64,000 bases of DNA from Manis javanica. Its lineage: Eukaryota; Chordata; Mammalia; Pholidota; Manidae. Both the position numbers and the translations under genes were made by a program. The stretch covers positions 162,165,401 to 162,229,400 of the forward strand of contig NC_133158.1 of NCBI RefSeq assembly GCF_040802235.1, read 5' to 3'. The notes below the pieces were generated by a model. It was not told the origin of the DNA. It made no database searches and saw only the letters and a list, made by a program, of their open reading frames with translations. Shown piece by piece: positions 42,445-55,421 of this stretch. Numbering within the stretch: position 1 is the stretch's first letter; each line of letters opens with the position of its first letter.

Positions 42445-42459
42445 AAAATGGACCATAGA
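42445..42459 (+). repeat. 15-bp target-site duplication, left copy
   Basis: AAAATGGACCATAGA, identical to 49953-49967. The minus strand reads TTTT followed by GAGT at the nick site, a common L1 endonuclease target variant. Joining the flanks gives continuous old L1 sequence, which confirms the empty site. Confidence 0.93.
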
Positions 42460-42854
42460 GGCGGAGCGAAGATGGCGGCGTGAGTAGAGCAGTGGAAATC
42501 TCCTCCCAAAAACACATAGAGCTATGAAAATATAACAAAGAAAAATCTTCCTAAAATAGAGACCACAGGACACAGGACAACATCCAGACCACATCCACAC
42601 CTGCAAGAACCCAGCGCCTTGTGAAGGGGGGCTCCACCATTTTGGAGGAACAGCCCCAGCCAGGCCAAGCCCACAGCAACAGCGGAGATAAACCCCAAAG
42701 CAACTGGGCAGGAAGCAGAAGCCCTGTCTGCGCACAGCTGCCCAGCACAAGCCACTAGAGGTCGCTATTCTCCCAGGAAAAGGCTACAAACCAACAAGAA
42801 GGGAAGCTCTTCCAGCGGTCACTTGTACCAGCTCTGCAAACTATCTCTATCACC
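42460..42854 (+). promoter_or_regulatory. L1 5'UTR and internal promoter
   Basis: Begins GGCGGAGCGAAGATGGCGGC directly after the target-site duplication. AAGATGGCGG at 42469-42478 matches the YY1 site that positions the transcription start in L1 5'UTRs. The presence of this 5' end means the copy is not 5'-truncated. At about 395 bp the 5'UTR is short compared with the roughly 900-bp human L1 5'UTR. Confidence 0.8.
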
Positions 42855-43745
42855 ATGAAAAGGCAAAACTACAGGCAGACAAAGATCACAGAGACAACAC
42901 CTGAGAAGGAGACAGACCTAACTAGTCTTCCTGAAAAAGAATTCAAAATAAAAATCATGAACATGCTGACAGAGATGCAGAAAAAAATGCAAGAGCAATG
43001 GGATGAGATGCAGAGAAAAATGCAAGAGCAGTGGGATGAAGTCCGGAAGGAGATCACAGATGTCAGGAAAGAGATCACAGAATTGAAACAATCCCTGGAA
43101 GGATTTATAAGCAGAATGGATAAGATGCAAGAGGCCATTGAAGGAATAGAAGCCAGAGAACAGGAACGTATAGAAGCTGACATAGAGAGAGATAAAAGGA
43201 TCTCCAGGAATGAAACAACACTGAGAGAAATATGTGACCAATACAAAAGGAAAAACATTCGTATTATAGGGATACCAGAAGAGGAAGAAAGAGGAAAAGG
43301 GATAGAAAGTGTCTTTGAAGAAATAATTGCTGAAAACTTCCCCAAACTGGGGGAGGAAATAATCGAACAGACCATGGAATTATATAGAACCCCCAACAGA
43401 AAGGATCCAAGGAGGACAACACCAAGACACATAATAATTAAAATGGCAAGGATCAAGGACAAGGAAAGAGTTTTAAAGGCAGCTAGAGAGAAAAAGGTCA
43501 CCTATAAAGGAAAACCAATCAGGCTAACATCAGACTTCTCAACAGAAACCCTACAGGCCAGAAGAGAATGGCATGATATACTTAATGCAATGAAACAGAA
43601 GGGCCTTGAACCAAGGATACTGTATCCAGCACGACTATCATTTAAATATGATGGTGGGATCAAACAATTCCCAGACAAGCAAAAGCTGAGGGAATTTGCT
43701 TCCCACAAACCACCTCTACAGGGCATCCTACAGGGACTGCTCTAG
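42855..43745 (+). CDS. L1 ORF1 protein (RNA-binding chaperone), intact
   Basis: This is an intact 296-codon frame with start context ACCATGA and stop TAG. In the L1 family, ORF1p trimerises through a coiled coil, coats L1 RNA and assists target-primed reverse transcription. The N-terminal third is charged and rich in Glu, Lys and Gln. A coiled coil spans about residues 35-95 and includes a tandem QKKMQEQWDEM / QRKMQEQWDEV repeat followed by two RKEIT heptads. The RRM-like domain contains NIRIIGIPEEEERGKG (about residues 134-150). The C-terminal domain includes TPRHIIIKMARIKDKERVL and ends near LQGILQGLL. The protein is somewhat shorter than human ORF1p (338 residues). No internal stop or frameshift is seen, so this copy could still encode ORF1p. 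Confidence 0.93.
   Translation: MKRQNYRQTKITETTPEKETDLTSLPEKEFKIKIMNMLTEMQKKMQEQWDEMQRKMQEQWDEVRKEITDVRKEITELKQSLEGFISRMDKMQEAIEGIEAREQERIEADIERDKRISRNETTLREICDQYKRKNIRIIGIPEEEERGKGIESVFEEIIAENFPKLGEEIIEQTMELYRTPNRKDPRRTTPRHIIIKMARIKDKERVLKAAREKKVTYKGKPIRLTSDFSTETLQARREWHDILNAMKQKGLEPRILYPARLSFKYDGGIKQFPDKQKLREFASHKPPLQGILQGLL
42978..43085 (+). repeat. Tandem repeats inside the ORF1 coiled coil
   Basis: Two 33-bp units (42978-43010, 43011-43043) encode 11-residue repeats. Two 21-bp units (43044-43064, 43065-43085) encode 7-residue repeats. All keep frame. The switch from an 11-residue to a 7-residue period changes the predicted coiled-coil geometry. Confidence 0.85.
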
Positions 43746-43940
43746 ATGGGAGCACCCCTAAAAAGAGCACAGAACAAAACACACAACATATGAAGAATGG
43801 AGGAGGAGGAATAAGAAGGGAGAGAAGAAAAGACTCTCCAGACAGTGTATATAACAGCTCAATAAGCGAGCTAAGTTAGGCAGTAAGATACTAAAGAAGC
43901 TAACCTTGAACCTTTGGTAACCACGAATCTAAAGCCTGCA

Positions 43941-46900
43941 ATGGCAATAAGTACATATCTTTCAATAGTCACCCTAAATGTAAATGGACTTAATGCACCA
44001 ATCAAAAGACATAGAGTAATAGAATGGATAAAAAAGCAAGACCCATCTATATGCTGCTTACAAGAAACTCACCTTAAACCCAAAGATAAGCATAGACTAA
44101 AAGTCAAGGGATGGAAAAACATATCTCAGGCAAACAACAGTGAGAAGAAAGCAGGGGTTGCAGTACTAATATCAGACAAAATAGACTTCAAAACAAAGAA
44201 AGTAACAAGAGATAAAGAAGGCCACTACATAATGATAAAGGGCTTAGTCCAACAAGAGGATATAACCATTCTAAATATATATGCACCCAATACAGGAGCA
44301 CCAGCATATGTGAAGCAAATACTAACAGAACTAAAGAGGGAAATAGACTGCAATGCATTCATTGTAGGAGACTTCAACACACCACTCACCCCAAAGGATA
44401 GATCCACCGGGCAGAAAATAAGTAAAGACACACAGGCACTGAACAACACACTAGAACAGATGGACCTAATAGACATCTATAGAACTTTACATCCAAAAGC
44501 AACAGGATATACATTCTTCTCAAGTGCACATGGAACATTCTCCAGAATAGACCACATACTAGCTCACAAAAAGAGCCTCAGTAAATTCCACAATATTGAA
44601 ATTCTACCAACCAATTTTTCAGACCACAAAGGTATGAAAGTAGAAATAAATTCTACAAAGAAAACAAAAAGGCTCACAAACACATGGAGGCTTAACAACA
44701 TGCTACTAAATAATCAATGGATCAATGAACAAATCAAAATAGAGATCAAGGAATATATAGAAACAAATGACAACAACAACACTAAGCCCCAACTTCTGTG
44801 GGATGCAGCGAAAGCAGTCTTAAGAGGAAAGTATATAGCAATCCAGGCACACTTGAAGAAGGAAGAACAATCCCAAATGAATAGTCTAACATCACAATTA
44901 TTAAAACTGGAAAAAGAAGAACAAATGAGGCCTAAAGTCAGCAGAAGGAGGGACATAATAAAGATCAGAGAAGAAATAAACAAAATTGAGAAGAATAAAA
45001 CAATAGCAAAAATCAACGAAACCAAGAGCTGGTTCTTTGAGAAAATAAACAAAATAGATAAGCCTCTAGCCCAACTTATTAAGAGAAAAAGAGAGTCAAC
45101 ACAAATCAACATAATCAGAAATGAGAATGGAAAAATCACGACAGACTCCACAGAAATACAAAGAATTATTAAAGACTACTATGAAAACCTATATGCCAAC
45201 AAGCTGGAAAACCTAGAAGAAATGGACAACTTCCTAGAAAAATACAACCTCCCAAGACTGACCAAGGAAGAAACACAAAAGTTAAACAAACCAATTACAA
45301 GCAAAGAAATTGAAACAGTAATCAAAAAACTACCCAAGAACAAAACCCCGGGGCCGGACGGATTTACCTCGGAATTTTATCAGACACACAGAGAAGACAT
45401 AATACCCATTCTCCTTAAAGTGTTCCACAAAATAGAAGAAGAGGGAATACTCCCAAACTCATTCTATGAAGCCAACATCACCCTAATACCAAAACCAGGA
45501 AAAGACCCCACCAAAAAAGAAAATTACAGACCAATATCCCTGATGAACGTAGATGCAAAAATACTCAATAAAATATTAGCAAACAGAATTCAACAGTATA
45601 TCAAAAGGATCATACACCATAACCAAGTGGGGTTCATCCCAGGGATGCAAGGATGGTACAACATTCGAAAATCCATCAACATCATCCACCACATCAACAA
45701 AAAGAAAGACAAAAACCACATGATCATCTCCATAGATGCTGAAAAAGCATTTGACAAAATTCAACATCCATTCATGATAAAAACTCTCAGCAAAATGGGA
45801 ATAGAGGGCAAGTACCTCAACATAATAAAGGCCATATATGATAAACCCACAGCCAGCATTATACTGAACAGCGAGAAGCTGAAAGCATTTCCACTGAGAT
45901 CGGGAACCAGACAGGGATGCCCACTCTCCCCACTGTTATTTAACATAGTACTGGAGGTCCTAGCCACGGCAATCAGACAAAACAAAGAAATACAAGGAAT
46001 CCAGATTGGTAAAGAAGAAGTTAAACTGTCACTATTTGCAGATGATATGATACTGTACATAAAAAACCCTAAAGACTCCACTCCAAAACTACTAGAACTG
46101 ATATCGGAATACAGCAAAGTTGCAGGATACAAAATCAACACACAGAAATCTGTAGCTTTCCTATACACTAACAACGAATCAATAGAAAGAGAAATCAGGA
46201 AAACAATTCCATTCACCATTGCATCAAAAAGAATAAAATACCTAGGAATAAACCTAACCAAGGAAGTGAAAGACTTATACTCTGAAAACTACAAGTCACT
46301 CTTAAGAGAAATTAAAGGGGACACTAATAAATGGAAACTCATCCCATGCTCATGGCTAGGAAGAATTAATATCGTCAAAATGGCCATCCTGCCGAAAGCA
46401 ATATACAAATTTGATGCAATCCCTCTCAAATTACCAGCAACATTCTTCAATGAATTGGAACAAATAATTCAAAAATTCATATGGAAACACCAAAGACCCC
46501 GAATAGCCAAAGCAATCCTGAAAAAGAAGAATAAAGTAGGGGGGATCTCACTCCCCAACTTCAAGCTCTACTACAAAGCCATAGTAATCAAGACAATTTG
46601 GTACTGGCACAAGAACAGAGCCACAGACCAGTGGAACAGATTAGAGACCCCAGAAATTAACCCAAACATATATGGTCAATTAATATTTGATAAAGGAGCC
46701 ATGGACATACAATGGCAAAATGACAGTCTCTTCAACAGATGGTGCTGGCAAAACTGGACAGCTACATGTAGGAGAATGAAACTGGACCATTGTCTAACCC
46801 CATATACAAAGGTAAACTCAAAATGGATCAAAGACCTGAATGTAAGTCACGAAACCATTAAACTCTTGGAAAAAAACATAGGCAAAAACCTCTTAGATAT

Positions 46901-47189
46901 AAACATGAGTGATCTCTTCTTGAACATATCTCCCCGGGCAAGGAAAACAACAGCAAAAATGAGCAAGTGGGACTACATTAAGCTGAAAAGCTTCTGTACA
47001 GCGAAAGACACCATCAATAGAACAAAAAGGAACCCTACAGTATGGGAGAATATATTTGAAAATGACAGATCTGATAAAGGCTTGACGTCCAGAATATATA
47101 AAGAGCTCACACGCCTCAACAAACAAAAAACAAATAACCCAATTAAAAAATGGGCAGAGGAACTGAACAGACAGTTCTCCAAAAAATAA
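43941..47189 (+). CDS. L1 ORF2 endonuclease-reverse transcriptase, C-terminally truncated by a nonsense codon
   Basis: The ATG at 43941 is preferred over an upstream non-ATG extension because the product then starts [18 protein letters not shown], like other L1 ORF2 proteins. The apurinic-type endonuclease is present: [23 protein letters not shown] with its catalytic Glu, GDFNTPL, and [10 protein letters not shown] with SDHKGM for the catalytic Asp and His. Reverse transcriptase motifs follow: [63 protein letters not shown] and the catalytic FADDMILYI. The frame stops at TAA 47187-47189 after 1,082 codons. It stays open in the same frame to 47756, where a complete protein of 1,271 residues would end. 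A related copy at 54286-55421 has Glu at this site, so GAA to TAA is the likely change. Confidence 0.93.
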
Positions 47190-47756
47190 ATACAGATGGC
47201 CAAGAGACACATGAAAAGATGCTCCACATCGCTAATTATCAGAGAAATGCAAATTAAAACTACAATGAGGTATCACCTCACACCAGTAAGGATAGCTGCC
47301 ATCCAAAAGACAAACAACAACAAATGTTGGCGAGGCTGTGGAGAAAGGGGAACCCTCCTACACTGCTGGTGGGAATGTAAATTAGTTCAACCATTGTGGA
47401 AAGCAGTATGGAGGTGCATCAAAATGCTCAAAACAGACCTACCATTTGACCCAGGAATTCCACTCCTAGGAATTTACCCTAAGAACGCAGCAATCAAGTT
47501 TGAGAAAGACAGATGCACTCCTATGTTTATCGCAGCACTATTTACAATAGCCAAGAATTGGAAGCAACCTAAATGTCCATCTGTAGATGAATGGATAAAG
47601 AAGATGTGGTACATATACACAATGGAATACTACTCAGCCATAAGAAGTGGAAAAATCCAACCATTTGCAGCAACATGGATGGAGCTGGAGAGTATTATGC
47701 TCAGTGAAATAAGCCAAGCGGAGAAAGAGAAATACCAAATGATTTCACTCATCTGA
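47190..47756 (+). pseudogene. Disconnected C-terminal segment of L1 ORF2
   Basis: 188 codons in frame with ORF2 but beyond its premature stop. It encodes the cysteine-rich segment [18 protein letters not shown], the CCHC-type zinc-finger region of ORF2p, and the tail [19 protein letters not shown]. In studied L1 elements this C-terminal region is needed for efficient retrotransposition. Without readthrough, this copy would probably not jump by itself. Confidence 0.9.
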
Positions 47757-48130
47757 GGAGTATAGGAACAAAGGAAAAACTGAAGGAACAAAACAGCAGC
47801 AGAATTACAGAACCCAAAAATGGACTAACAGGTACCAAAGGGAAAGGAACTGGGGAGGATGGGTGGGCAGGGAGGGATAAGGGGGGGGAAGAAGAAGGGG
47901 GGTATTAAGATTAGCATGCATGGGGGGGAGGGAGAAAGGGGAGGGTGGGCTGCACAACACAGAGAGGACAAGTAGTGACTCTACAACATTTTGCTAAGCT
48001 GATGGACAGTAACCGTAATGTGGTTGTTAGGGGGGACCTGATATAGGGGAGAGCATAGTAAACATAGTATTCTTCAGGTAAGTGTAGATTAAAAATTTAA
48101 AAAAAAAAAAAAAGAAAGAAAGAAAGAAAA
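47757..48130 (+). mobile_element. L1 3'UTR with G-tracts and first A-tract
   Basis: Guanine runs of three to eight bases cluster at 47852-47950 and can form G-quadruplexes, a conserved feature of mammalian L1 3'UTRs. The body ends GTAGATTAAAAATTT and runs into an A-tract with AAAG units (48099-48130). I see no AATAAA in the last 50 bases, so the L1 polyadenylation signal is weak. Confidence 0.85.
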
Positions 48131-48296
48131 GGGGGATTACTCCTTAACAGGATAAAACTATTGGTAAATCAAAGATCAACGCATGCTTTAAATATCCTTA
48201 ATGTTGATCACTTAAAGGGTGTCAGATGATCAGCTATGGAGGTACTCTTTTCTGATAATATTCCTTTCTCTTAATTAAAAAAAAAAAAAAAAAAAA
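48131..48296 (+). mobile_element. Transduced segment 1 with second A-tract
   Basis: 146 bp of sequence unrelated to L1 (starts GGGGGATTACTCCTTAACAGG), ending in 20 A residues (48277-48296). The A-tract indicates that this junction was once the end of a polyadenylated transcript, or that the next segment was already a retroposon with its own neighbour. Confidence 0.75.
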
Positions 48297-48534
48297 GCAG
48301 TTACTGTGTGCTGACCTCCAATGAGTTCTGCACAGTGGTATAGAGGGCATGTCAAAGTGTGGGCAAAGGGTCTGTTTGTTTCTACGCAGAAGATCAAGGC
48401 CTAGCTTGGATACCCAGAAAATGAACTAAGATACGATATGAGGAGGAGCTTCCGGCATCAGCACTCTCTGGAGGACTCGTGCCGGGGGATGATCATCAAA
48501 AAGCCTCCACAGGGATCCGGACGATGCTGCGGTT

Positions 48535-48976
48535 GTGGCTGCATCCAGCCCACCATCTCCTGGACTTGCCATGAGAAGGAGGAGGGAGATGTCTAGGCTG
48601 GCATGTGCATACAGTGAGACAACGAATTTGACTGGATCTGTACTGTTGGAACTCAACCAGGAGTTGGGAGGGGTGCAAGTTGTAGCACCCCAAAATCTCA
48701 TGACTATAGACTATCTATGGTTAAAAGAACATATGGGATGTGAACAGATCCCAGAAATGGGCTGCTTTAATTTGTCTGATGGTTCAAGTACAGTTCGAAA
48801 ATATCCATCATATCATAGATAAATTTTCACAAATGCCTAGGGTGCCTAAATGGTTTTCTTGGCTTCACTGGAGATGGCTGGTGATTATAGATTTGCTTTG
48901 TTTATGTCACCGTATTCCTATTATGTCAATATGTGTGTGCAAATTAGTTAGTAGTTTAAAACCTATACATACTTAA
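48535..48976 (+). pseudogene. Broken retroviral env transmembrane (TM) subunit remnant
   Basis: Two overlapping frames carry it: 48535-48822, then 48740-48976 in another frame. A frameshift at about 48790 therefore separates them. The first part has a helical, leucine-rich segment followed by a cysteine pair resembling the loop between the two TM helices of gamma-type envelopes. The second part has a Trp-rich membrane-proximal stretch (about 48838-48880) and a hydrophobic transmembrane segment with cysteines (about 48885-48950). The surface subunit is absent or unrecognisable. The piece is short and non-functional. Assignment as env rests on motif order only. Confidence 0.6.
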
Positions 48977-49613
48977 GGTACTATACAAGAAGATATGTCA
49001 AAGAAATAATCAATCCTCCCAAGTTTCCTTCATATGCTACATCTATAGCTTTTCTTCTTCCTTCCTAATTACAAACTTTAAATAGAATTCGTGCCTCATA
49101 TCGAATTTACCGAGTATCATAATTCCTCCAGGTGGTAAAGATACCTCGAGACAAGTGCTGGGCATAGAAGCCACAGGGCATAAATCTGCAAAGAAGTAAA
49201 AAGCTAACCTTTGCAAACAATATGGCTTCTCTCTCACTTACCAACTTTACATTTCCCTGTATGGCCCCGGAAGATGACTGGTTAGCCAGAGACGGGTAAG
49301 ATTCCTCAAGGGAGGAACAACCTAAGACAGGCACAGTCGCAGGGGGGCCATCAGGTGAGAATTTGGGGATCAACAGAGGTGAGGCTCAGAACCTCACCCC
49401 CCCTGCTTTGAGAGAAATCTTCTGCATCCGTGGATGTCTTGCTGCCCTTGTCTAGCCTGGATTAATACTTAGTCCATAGGCACACACCTGATCATCTGAT
49501 CATCTACATTTGCCTTCTTACAGCACTAAACTATGTTTTCTACCTTTATCTTGCATCTACCTACCACTTCAGCATTTTATTAAAAATAAAAATAATAATA
49601 ATAATAGGAGAAA

Positions 49614-49936
49614 TGTGGGATCAACATATAAATCAAGTACAAAAATCAAATGAATATTCATATTTGACCTGATGGTTTATAGGTCATATTGCATGATCAA
49701 AACCGAAAGTTTCTGTGATGACTGCCCTTGTACTGTTCACCATGTAAGAATTTATTCACTCTGTAAGAATTCGTTCACCATGTAAGAACTTGTTCGTTAT
49801 GCTTCAGAAGATTGGAGACTGACGAGAATTAGGCTTGAGATGGATTAATGATTGTACATTGAGCATTGACCCCCCTATACTGAATTTTATTGTTGTTAAC
49901 AACCATTTGATCAATAAATATGAGAGATGCCCTCTC
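49614..49936 (+). mobile_element. ERV LTR (U3-R part) of the transduced tail
   Basis: Starts TGTGGGATCAAC after a purine-rich tract and ends at the A-tract, 18 bases after AATAAA (49913-49918). It contains three 19-bp tandem units and a GTTGTTAACAAC palindrome (49892-49903). The absence of U5 matches a transcript end. It provides the poly(A) site that the L1 body lacks. Confidence 0.65.
49738..49794 (+). repeat. Three 19-bp tandem repeats in the LTR
   Basis: Units at 49738, 49757 and 49776 each follow CACCATGTAAGAATTTATT with one to four changes. Short tandem repeats in U3 often act as enhancer elements in retroviral LTRs. Whether these do is not shown. Confidence 0.85.
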
Positions 49937-49952
49937 AAAAAAAAAAAAAAAA

Positions 49953-49967
49953 AAAATGGACCATAGA
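49953..49967 (+). repeat. 15-bp target-site duplication, right copy
   Basis: AAAATGGACCATAGA, identical to 42445-42459. Its first four A residues overlap the third A-tract. Confidence 0.93.
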
Positions 49968-54285: not shown

Positions 54286-55421
54286 CTAAAAATAATTAAT
54301 TACTTTATTATTATTTTTTGAAGAACATTATGTTTACTAGGCTCTCCCCTACCCCACGTCCCCCCCACAAACCCCATTACAGTCACTGTCCATCAGCATA
54401 GTAAGATGTTGTAGAATCAGTACTTGTCTTCTGTGTTGCAAAGCCCTTCCCTTTCCCCCACCCCCCACATTATACATGCCAATAATAATACCTTCTTTCT
54501 TCTTCCCTGCCCCTATCCCTCCCTACCCTCCCATTCTCCCCAGTCTCTTTCCCTTTGGTAACTGTTAGTCCATTCTTGGGTTCTGTGATTCTGCTGCTGT
54601 TTTGTTCCTTCAATTTTTCTTTTGTTCTTATACTCCACAGATGAGTGAAATCATTCGGTATTTGTTTTTCTCCGCTTGGCTTATTTCACTAAGCATAATA
54701 CCCTCTAGCTCCATCCATGTTGTTGCAAATGGTAGGATTTGTTTTCTTCTTATGGCTGAATAATATTCCACTGTGTATATGTACCACATCTTCTTTATCC
54801 ACTCATCTACTGATGGACACTTAGGTTGCTTCCATTTCTTGGCTATTGTAAATAGTTCTGTGATAAACATAGGCGTGCATCTGTCTTTTTCAAACTGGAG
54901 TGCTGCATCCTTAGGGTAAATTCCTAGAAGTGGAATCCCTGGGTCAAATGGTAAGTCTATTTTGTGCATTTTGAGGAACCTCCATACTGCTTTCCACAAT
55001 GGTTGAACTAATTTACATTCCCACCAACAGTGTAGGAGGGTTCCCCTTTCTCCGCAACCTCGCCAACATTTGTTGTTGTTTGTCTTTTGGATGGTGGCCA
55101 TCCTTACTGGTGTGAGGTGATATCTCATTGTGGTTTTAATTTGCATTTCTCTGATAATTAGCGATGTGGAGCATCTTTTCATGTGTCTGTTGGCCATCTG
55201 AATTTCTTCTTTGGAGAACTTTCTGTTCAGCTCCTCTGCCCATTTTTTAATTGGATTATTTGCTTTTTGTTTGTTGAGGAGCGTGAGCTCTTTATATATT
55301 TTGGATGTCAAGCCTTTATCGGATCTGTCATTTATGAAAATATTCTCCCATACTGTAGGGTACCTTTTTGTTCTATTGATGGTGTCCTTTGCTGTACAGA
55401 AGCTTTTCAGCTTGATATATG
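54286..55421 (-). mobile_element. 5'-truncated young L1 nested in the solo LTR
   Basis: Target-site duplications GAATCTTACATTTT (54272-54285) and GAATCTTACGTTTT (55422-55435) flank it, with one mismatch. Inside is inverted L1: a 3'UTR with C-tracts (the complement of the G-tracts at 47852-47950), then ORF2 C-terminal sequence. It belongs to the same L1 family as the element at 42460. It ends at the L1 body without the ERV tail. Confidence 0.92.
54628..55311 (-). pseudogene. L1 ORF2 C-terminal fragment
   Basis: A 227-codon open frame on the minus strand covering the end of ORF2: [20 protein letters not shown], the [18 protein letters not shown] zinc-finger segment, then [18 protein letters not shown]. 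It lacks endonuclease and reverse transcriptase domains, so it is a dead fragment. It preserves Glu at the position where the full-length copy has its premature stop, which makes it a useful internal reference. Confidence 0.9.

What the first reader, a model, noticed from the sequence alone, without database searches (positions are those of the whole stretch)
42445..49967. An L1 and a retroviral tail inserted as one chimeric retroposon
Identical 15-bp target-site duplications (AAAATGGACCATAGA) lie at 42445 and 49953, outside both the full-length L1 and about 1.8 kb of non-L1 sequence. Joining the flanks restores continuous old L1 sequence. Therefore L1 and tail came from one RNA. Known L1 3' transductions usually carry anonymous flanking DNA; here the cargo is an ERV env-LTR piece with its own strong poly(A) site. 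If the same tail recurs elsewhere in the genome, this would be a lineage of L1 that has adopted a retroviral 3' end as a stable part.
Basis: partly seen in the sequence, partly recalled or inferred. Interest (0 to 1): 0.88.

Follow-up and report, generated by a model that had tools for sequence, protein, structure and literature searches.

The report
Pangolin L1 with retroviral 3' end
In what appears to be a pangolin genome, a young family of LINE-1 jumping genes carries a piece of an old retrovirus permanently attached to its end, probably supplying the signal that ends its RNA, so the chimera seen here is one copy of a whole lineage.

Summary
In detail: a 15-bp duplication brackets an L1 plus about 1.8 kb of other sequence, with an env-TM remnant and a putative LTR (AATAAA 23 nt before the poly(A)).

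The lineage idea holds in both samples. Selected by the tail, 40 of 40 scored matches (of 811 first-look candidates; the window's own copy included) join the same L1 3' end. Selected by L1 5'UTR alone, 40 of 40 scored (of 1531) carry the tail; four loci are in both sets, so 76 distinct loci. Target-site duplications lie outside the whole unit in 6 of 6 further copies with both ends read; 4 of these 6 carry still more 3' cargo. Seven of ten fully read copies have both ORFs open; L1 bodies differ by 0.19% on average. Three older L1s read to their 3' end lack the tail; a fourth, ending early, also lacks it.

So an ERV fragment became the 3' end of a recent L1 lineage, probably by serial 3' transduction (inferred). 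The host is a pangolin, by ORF1 similarity. Not found or not tested: donor provirus, intermediates, LTR function, copy number, other species. The window copy itself has a broken ORF2 and a shortened 5'UTR.

The parts
42445..42459 (+). 5' target-site duplication
   Evidence: exact 15-mer
42460..42854 (+). L1 5'UTR, shortened: lacks about 1.2 kb present in 6 of 7 relatives extended upstream; junction in the G-run near 42626-42631
42855..43745 (+). L1 ORF1, 296 aa (307 aa in 10 of 10 other copies read in full)
   Evidence: PF02994 and PF17490
43941..47189 (+). L1 ORF2 from its ATG, endonuclease and RT domains; frame ends early here (1271 aa in 7 of 10 other copies)
   Evidence: for domains
47757..48098 (+). 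L1 3'UTR; of the two hexamers sought (AATAAA, ATTAAA) only ATTAAA, at 48088
48099..48130 (+). A-run and (GAAA)n at the L1-tail junction, read as the former L1 3' end
48131..48276 (+). tail segment A, unidentified
48277..48296 (+). second internal A-run, read as an earlier 3' end
48297..49613 (+). tail segment B with env remnant; stretch matching ASLV TM is 48610-48801
49614..49936 (+). putative ERV LTR up to the poly(A) site; AATAAA at 49913
   Evidence: LTR identity inferred from TG start after a purine-rich stretch, env upstream and poly(A) site; no paired LTR seen
49937..49956 (+). poly(A) of the insertion, overlapping the first A's of the 3' TSD
49953..49967 (+). 3' target-site duplication
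   Evidence: exact 15-mer

Best explanation
A recent L1 lineage in this pangolin genome has an endogenous-retrovirus env-LTR fragment as its 3' end. Shown: L1 and tail recur joined through one junction at 76 loci, and entered as one unit at the seven sites where both ends were read (window included). Inferred: the tail was gained by serial 3' transduction. An L1 read through its A-rich end into segment A and was polyadenylated after it; a daughter copy later read through into ERV 3' sequence and used the LTR's AATAAA and poly(A) site. ORF2p then primed on that poly(A), so descendants keep the LTR as 3' end.
For: Tail search: 40 scored of 811 candidates, each 1-1191 of 1191; 30 of 30 fetched (L001 being the window itself) have L1 directly upstream and the same junction, as do the other 10. 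5'UTR search: 40 scored of 1531; 36 of 36 newly read junctions align without break from L1 3'UTR into the tail (the exact probe hit 32, the other 4 aligned but did not match it letter for letter); the other 4 are L002, L008, L012, L027, already known to carry it. TSDs of 14-19 bp outside the unit in 6 of 6 further copies. ORF1 and ORF2 both open in 7 of 10 copies read in full. Mean pairwise difference 0.19% over 5.3 kb of L1 body, 11 copies with the window. Older L1s lack the tail: 3 of 3 read to their 3' end. Two internal A-runs. Ongoing transduction: a 21-nt piece in 4 of 29 loci whose 3' flank was printed; L002 has the 3' flank of the L012 locus inside its own TSD.
Against: Donor ERV and intermediates were not found; those searches did not complete. 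Internal A-runs could also come from nested insertion or template switching in the founder. Both samples are the best matches, so old or tail-less relatives are under-sampled. The older truncated copy next to L017 has the tail but showed no TSD beyond A's. LTR function is inferred; another AATAAA at 49585 lies ahead of the LTR and is not the 3' end in the copies read. TSD matching had no shuffle control.
Confidence: 0.87

Rival explanations
1. Same lineage, other founder route: an ERV-derived retrocopy inserted into the poly(A) of an L1, hiding its TSD, and that compound locus was then transcribed and amplified as one RNA. (This and the next rival concern only the founder and do not exclude the lineage claim.)
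For: An A-run precedes each tail segment; a TSD within A's would be invisible.
Against: Segment A has its own A-run before the env-LTR segment, so two ordered events would be needed. Other copies show 3' cargo with TSDs beyond it.
Confidence: 0.25
2. Same lineage, other founder route: the L1 RT switched from an ERV transcript to L1 RNA during one insertion.
For: Junctions lie in A-rich sequence. Chimeric retrocopies made by switching are known (recalled).
Against: In the known chimeras L1 is the 3' part (recalled); here it is the 5' part, and two events are again needed. Not tested.
Confidence: 0.1
3. Independent insertions abut in this window only; the chimera is a one-off.
For: Only the hidden-TSD argument.
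Against: The same join at 76 distinct loci from two selections.
Confidence: 0.01
4. The tail is an SVA-like non-autonomous retroposon that multiplies by itself and is only sometimes next to L1.
For: An env-LTR piece ending at a poly(A) site resembles SINE-R (recalled). The LTR query found 0 candidates, not even the window, which suggests that its words are too common; LTR-only copies are likely, though 5' truncation would give these too.
Against: 40 of 40 scored full tails have L1 upstream, but 771 of 811 candidates were not scored.
Confidence: 0.05

Closest known systems
L1 3' transduction lineages (recalled from human L1)
   Same: Downstream sequence is carried by read-through and inherited; TSDs lie beyond the cargo (L002, L012, L015, L016).
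   Different: The cargo is an ERV env-LTR end and is present in each of the 76 loci read, as the 3' end of a lineage rather than a tag on a few offspring.
SVA (SINE-R-VNTR-Alu)
   Same: 3' domain from an ERV env-LTR region, moved by L1 (recalled).
   Different: SVA is non-autonomous; here the ERV end is attached to an L1 with its own ORF1 and ORF2.
Manis javanica L1 (ORF1 protein P0001)
   Same: ORF1 95% identical to the window copy.
   Different: Only the protein was seen; whether its L1 has the tail is unknown.
ERV-Gamma.b9-Mpen (Manis pentadactyla), PMC12584738
   Same: An almost complete LINE-1 between ENV and 3' LTR, which could let L1 read into an ERV 3' end (section 6 read).
SpIREs (spliced L1 copies), PMC5860796 (abstract seen)
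   Same: The window copy lacks about 1.2 kb inside the 5'UTR, from a G-run with a GTAAG donor-like site.
   Different: No AG at the other boundary; a deletion or RT jump across shared G's fits equally.

Membership tests
LINE-1 | ORF1 with L1 RBD, ORF2 with endonuclease and RT | tested here: met
   both frames open in 7 of 10 other copies
LINE-1 | TPRT hallmarks: poly(A) end and TSD of varying length beginning with A's | tested here: met
   7 of 7 copies with both ends read, window included; L005, the seventh copy extended upstream, was left out because older L1 sequence lies upstream
L1 3' transduction | non-L1 sequence between L1 3' end and distal poly(A), inside the TSD | tested here: met
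L1 3' transduction | cargo matches the flank of a source L1 locus | tested here: inconclusive
   met for the later cargo of L002 (flank of the L012 locus); source of the main tail not found
ERV provirus | paired LTRs with gag-pol-env | tested here: not met
   only an env remnant and one LTR-like end inside the window unit
SVA-like non-autonomous retroposon | no own RT; spreads independently of L1 | tested here: not met
   40 of 40 scored full tails are joined to L1; the other 771 candidates not scored
SpIRE | GT-AG intron missing from the L1 5'UTR | tested here: inconclusive
   GT donor-like start, no AG at the other side

The most novel reading that the evidence does not exclude
The LTR poly(A) site gave this L1 a more efficient 3' end, and the lineage that captured it displaced the other L1s, so that essentially every active L1 of this pangolin now ends in a retroviral LTR.
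Probability: 0.4. Interest if true: 0.85.

Novelty: new variant of a known kind. Interest (0 to 1): 0.74.

Why it matters
L1 lineages replace one another, and why one wins is unclear. Here a young lineage is marked by a discrete, datable gain of a foreign 3' end with a canonical poly(A) signal, so the effect of 3'-end quality on L1 success becomes testable. It also shows an autonomous LINE using a viral part as its terminus, and later transductions let parent and offspring loci be traced.

Tried and rejected
Chance or abutting insertions: rejected by recurrence. DNA searches with the LTR (49614-49936) and with 48118-48420 gave 0 candidates, not even the window itself; the tool skips very common words, so this is not read as absence. 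LTR strings in viral contigs and genome contigs: 0 matches. Never answered: donor ERV (PF00429), copy counts by pattern, LTR-plus-U5 pattern, older tails (L078), window 48840-49240. Ten paper searches: no listed title or abstract start describes this element; the lists were capped in 40, 61 and 71, and 70, 98 and 120 found no paper. Papers seen: PMC12584738, passages and section 6; PMC4643047, abstract, outline and passages; PMC5860796, abstract and outline; others as listings only. Canonical splicing of the window 5'UTR was considered and left open.

Full report
Observation. A 15-bp target-site duplication encloses an L1 and about 1.8 kb of other sequence. The L1 has ORF1 and ORF2 domains; here ORF1 is 296 aa and the ORF2 frame is cut short. 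The tail reads: A-run with GAAA repeats, segment A (146 bp), second A-run, segment B with a TM-like env remnant (PDB ASLV TM, E = 4e-7; no Pfam family), putative LTR with AATAAA at 49913, poly(A) from 49937.

A TSD outside both parts does not prove one RNA: a second insertion into the L1 poly(A) would hide its duplication in A's. So I asked whether the join recurs.

Selected by the tail. The window lies in a 2.56-Gb genome. Searching 48420-49610 gave 811 first-look candidates; 40 were scored, all matching over 1191 of 1191 bases, one being the window itself. In 30 of 30 fetched loci (L001 = window) L1 lies directly upstream through the same A/GAAA junction, at 99.4-100% over 3 kb, and the match ends within 4 bases of window 49936. 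In 27 of 30 the exact end string was printed with A's after it; L009 and L011 end one base earlier; L025 aligns to 49932 and its flank was not printed. The other 10 of 40 show the junction.

Selected without the tail. With 702 bp of L1 5'UTR as query: 1531 first-look candidates, 40 scored. Four (L002, L008, L012, L027) were already known to carry the tail. For the other 36, 601 bp at the expected place align without break from L1 3'UTR into the tail, 36 of 36, at 97.0-99.5% (the exact 15-mer probe hit 32). Distinct loci in both selections: 76. Both are best-match samples and favour young copies.

One unit. Seven copies were extended upstream; L005 was set aside because older L1 sequence lies there. 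In the other six a duplication of 14-19 bp lies outside L1 plus tail: right after the poly(A) in L003 and L004, beyond further cargo in L012, L015, L016 and L002 (at 66, 247, 215 and 496 nt). The match was sought in 1100 nt without a shuffle control. L002 carries the 3' flank of the L012 locus, on another contig, before its own duplication, and their L1 bodies show no difference, so L012 or a close sister is its likely parent. A 21-nt extra piece occurs in 4 of 29 loci with printed flank (L002, L005, L009, L012). L006 and L013 share a second LTR-like piece (96.9% to the window LTR, measured in L006) with poly(A).

Age and activity. Of ten copies read in full beside the window, chosen from those with the long 5'UTR, ten have ORF1 of 307 aa and seven ORF2 of 1271 aa open. 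Mean pairwise difference is 0.19% in L1 bodies and 0.05% in tails of 11 copies; in all 30 loci 0.33% (maximum 1.5%) for the fetched 3' L1 part. At 2.2e-9 per site and year (rate used for pangolin in PMC4643047, passage) 0.19% is roughly half a million years, for a sample chosen for likeness. A truncated copy beside L017 (the middle was not fetched; continuity inferred from spacing) has the tail at 98.3-98.5%, but no TSD beyond A's was found. Older L1s met as neighbours: the window's 54319-55419 element (89%), L117 (84.6%) and L115 (81.8%) reach the L1 3' end without tail; L116 (80%) stops earlier, also without.

5' end. 17 of 20 examined tail copies have a long 5'UTR; L005, L010 and L011 do not. 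In the one measured it contains 3.7 copies of a 209-bp repeat. The window copy lacks about 1.2 kb here, by deletion, RT jump or non-canonical splicing.

Host. ORF1 is 95% identical to a Manis javanica ORF1; 10 of the top 12 hits are named Manis and the other two unnamed (120 of 2338 listed). No tool named the genome.

Mechanism. Of the two hexamers sought, the L1 3'UTR has only ATTAAA, while the LTR has AATAAA 23 nt before its end; another AATAAA at 49585 lies ahead of the LTR. The internal A-runs are best read as former 3' ends, so serial 3' transduction is favoured (inferred). PMC12584738 reports a near-complete LINE-1 between env and 3' LTR of a Chinese pangolin ERV, which could start such a lineage, but no link is shown. 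Donor, intermediates, copy number and other species stay open; most genome searches did not complete.

Noticed in passing
L002 (C19) and L012 (C5): L002 carries the 3' flank of the L012 locus inside its TSD and has an L1 body without difference: a traceable recent parent-offspring pair.
   Followed up: partly
L006 and L013, 3' end: Two loci share a second, 5'-truncated LTR piece after the first poly(A), followed by another poly(A).
   Followed up: partly
L053 with L033; window 42626-42631: The long 5'UTR holds a 209-bp tandem repeat (3.7 units in the copy measured), like monomer-type L1 promoters; the window copy lacks about 1.2 kb of this region.
   Followed up: partly
L005 (C16): A tail copy lies inside an older L1 whose 3' end (L115) has no tail.
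   Followed up: partly
window 42855-43745: ORF1 of the window copy is 11 aa shorter than in the 10 other copies read in full.
   Followed up: no
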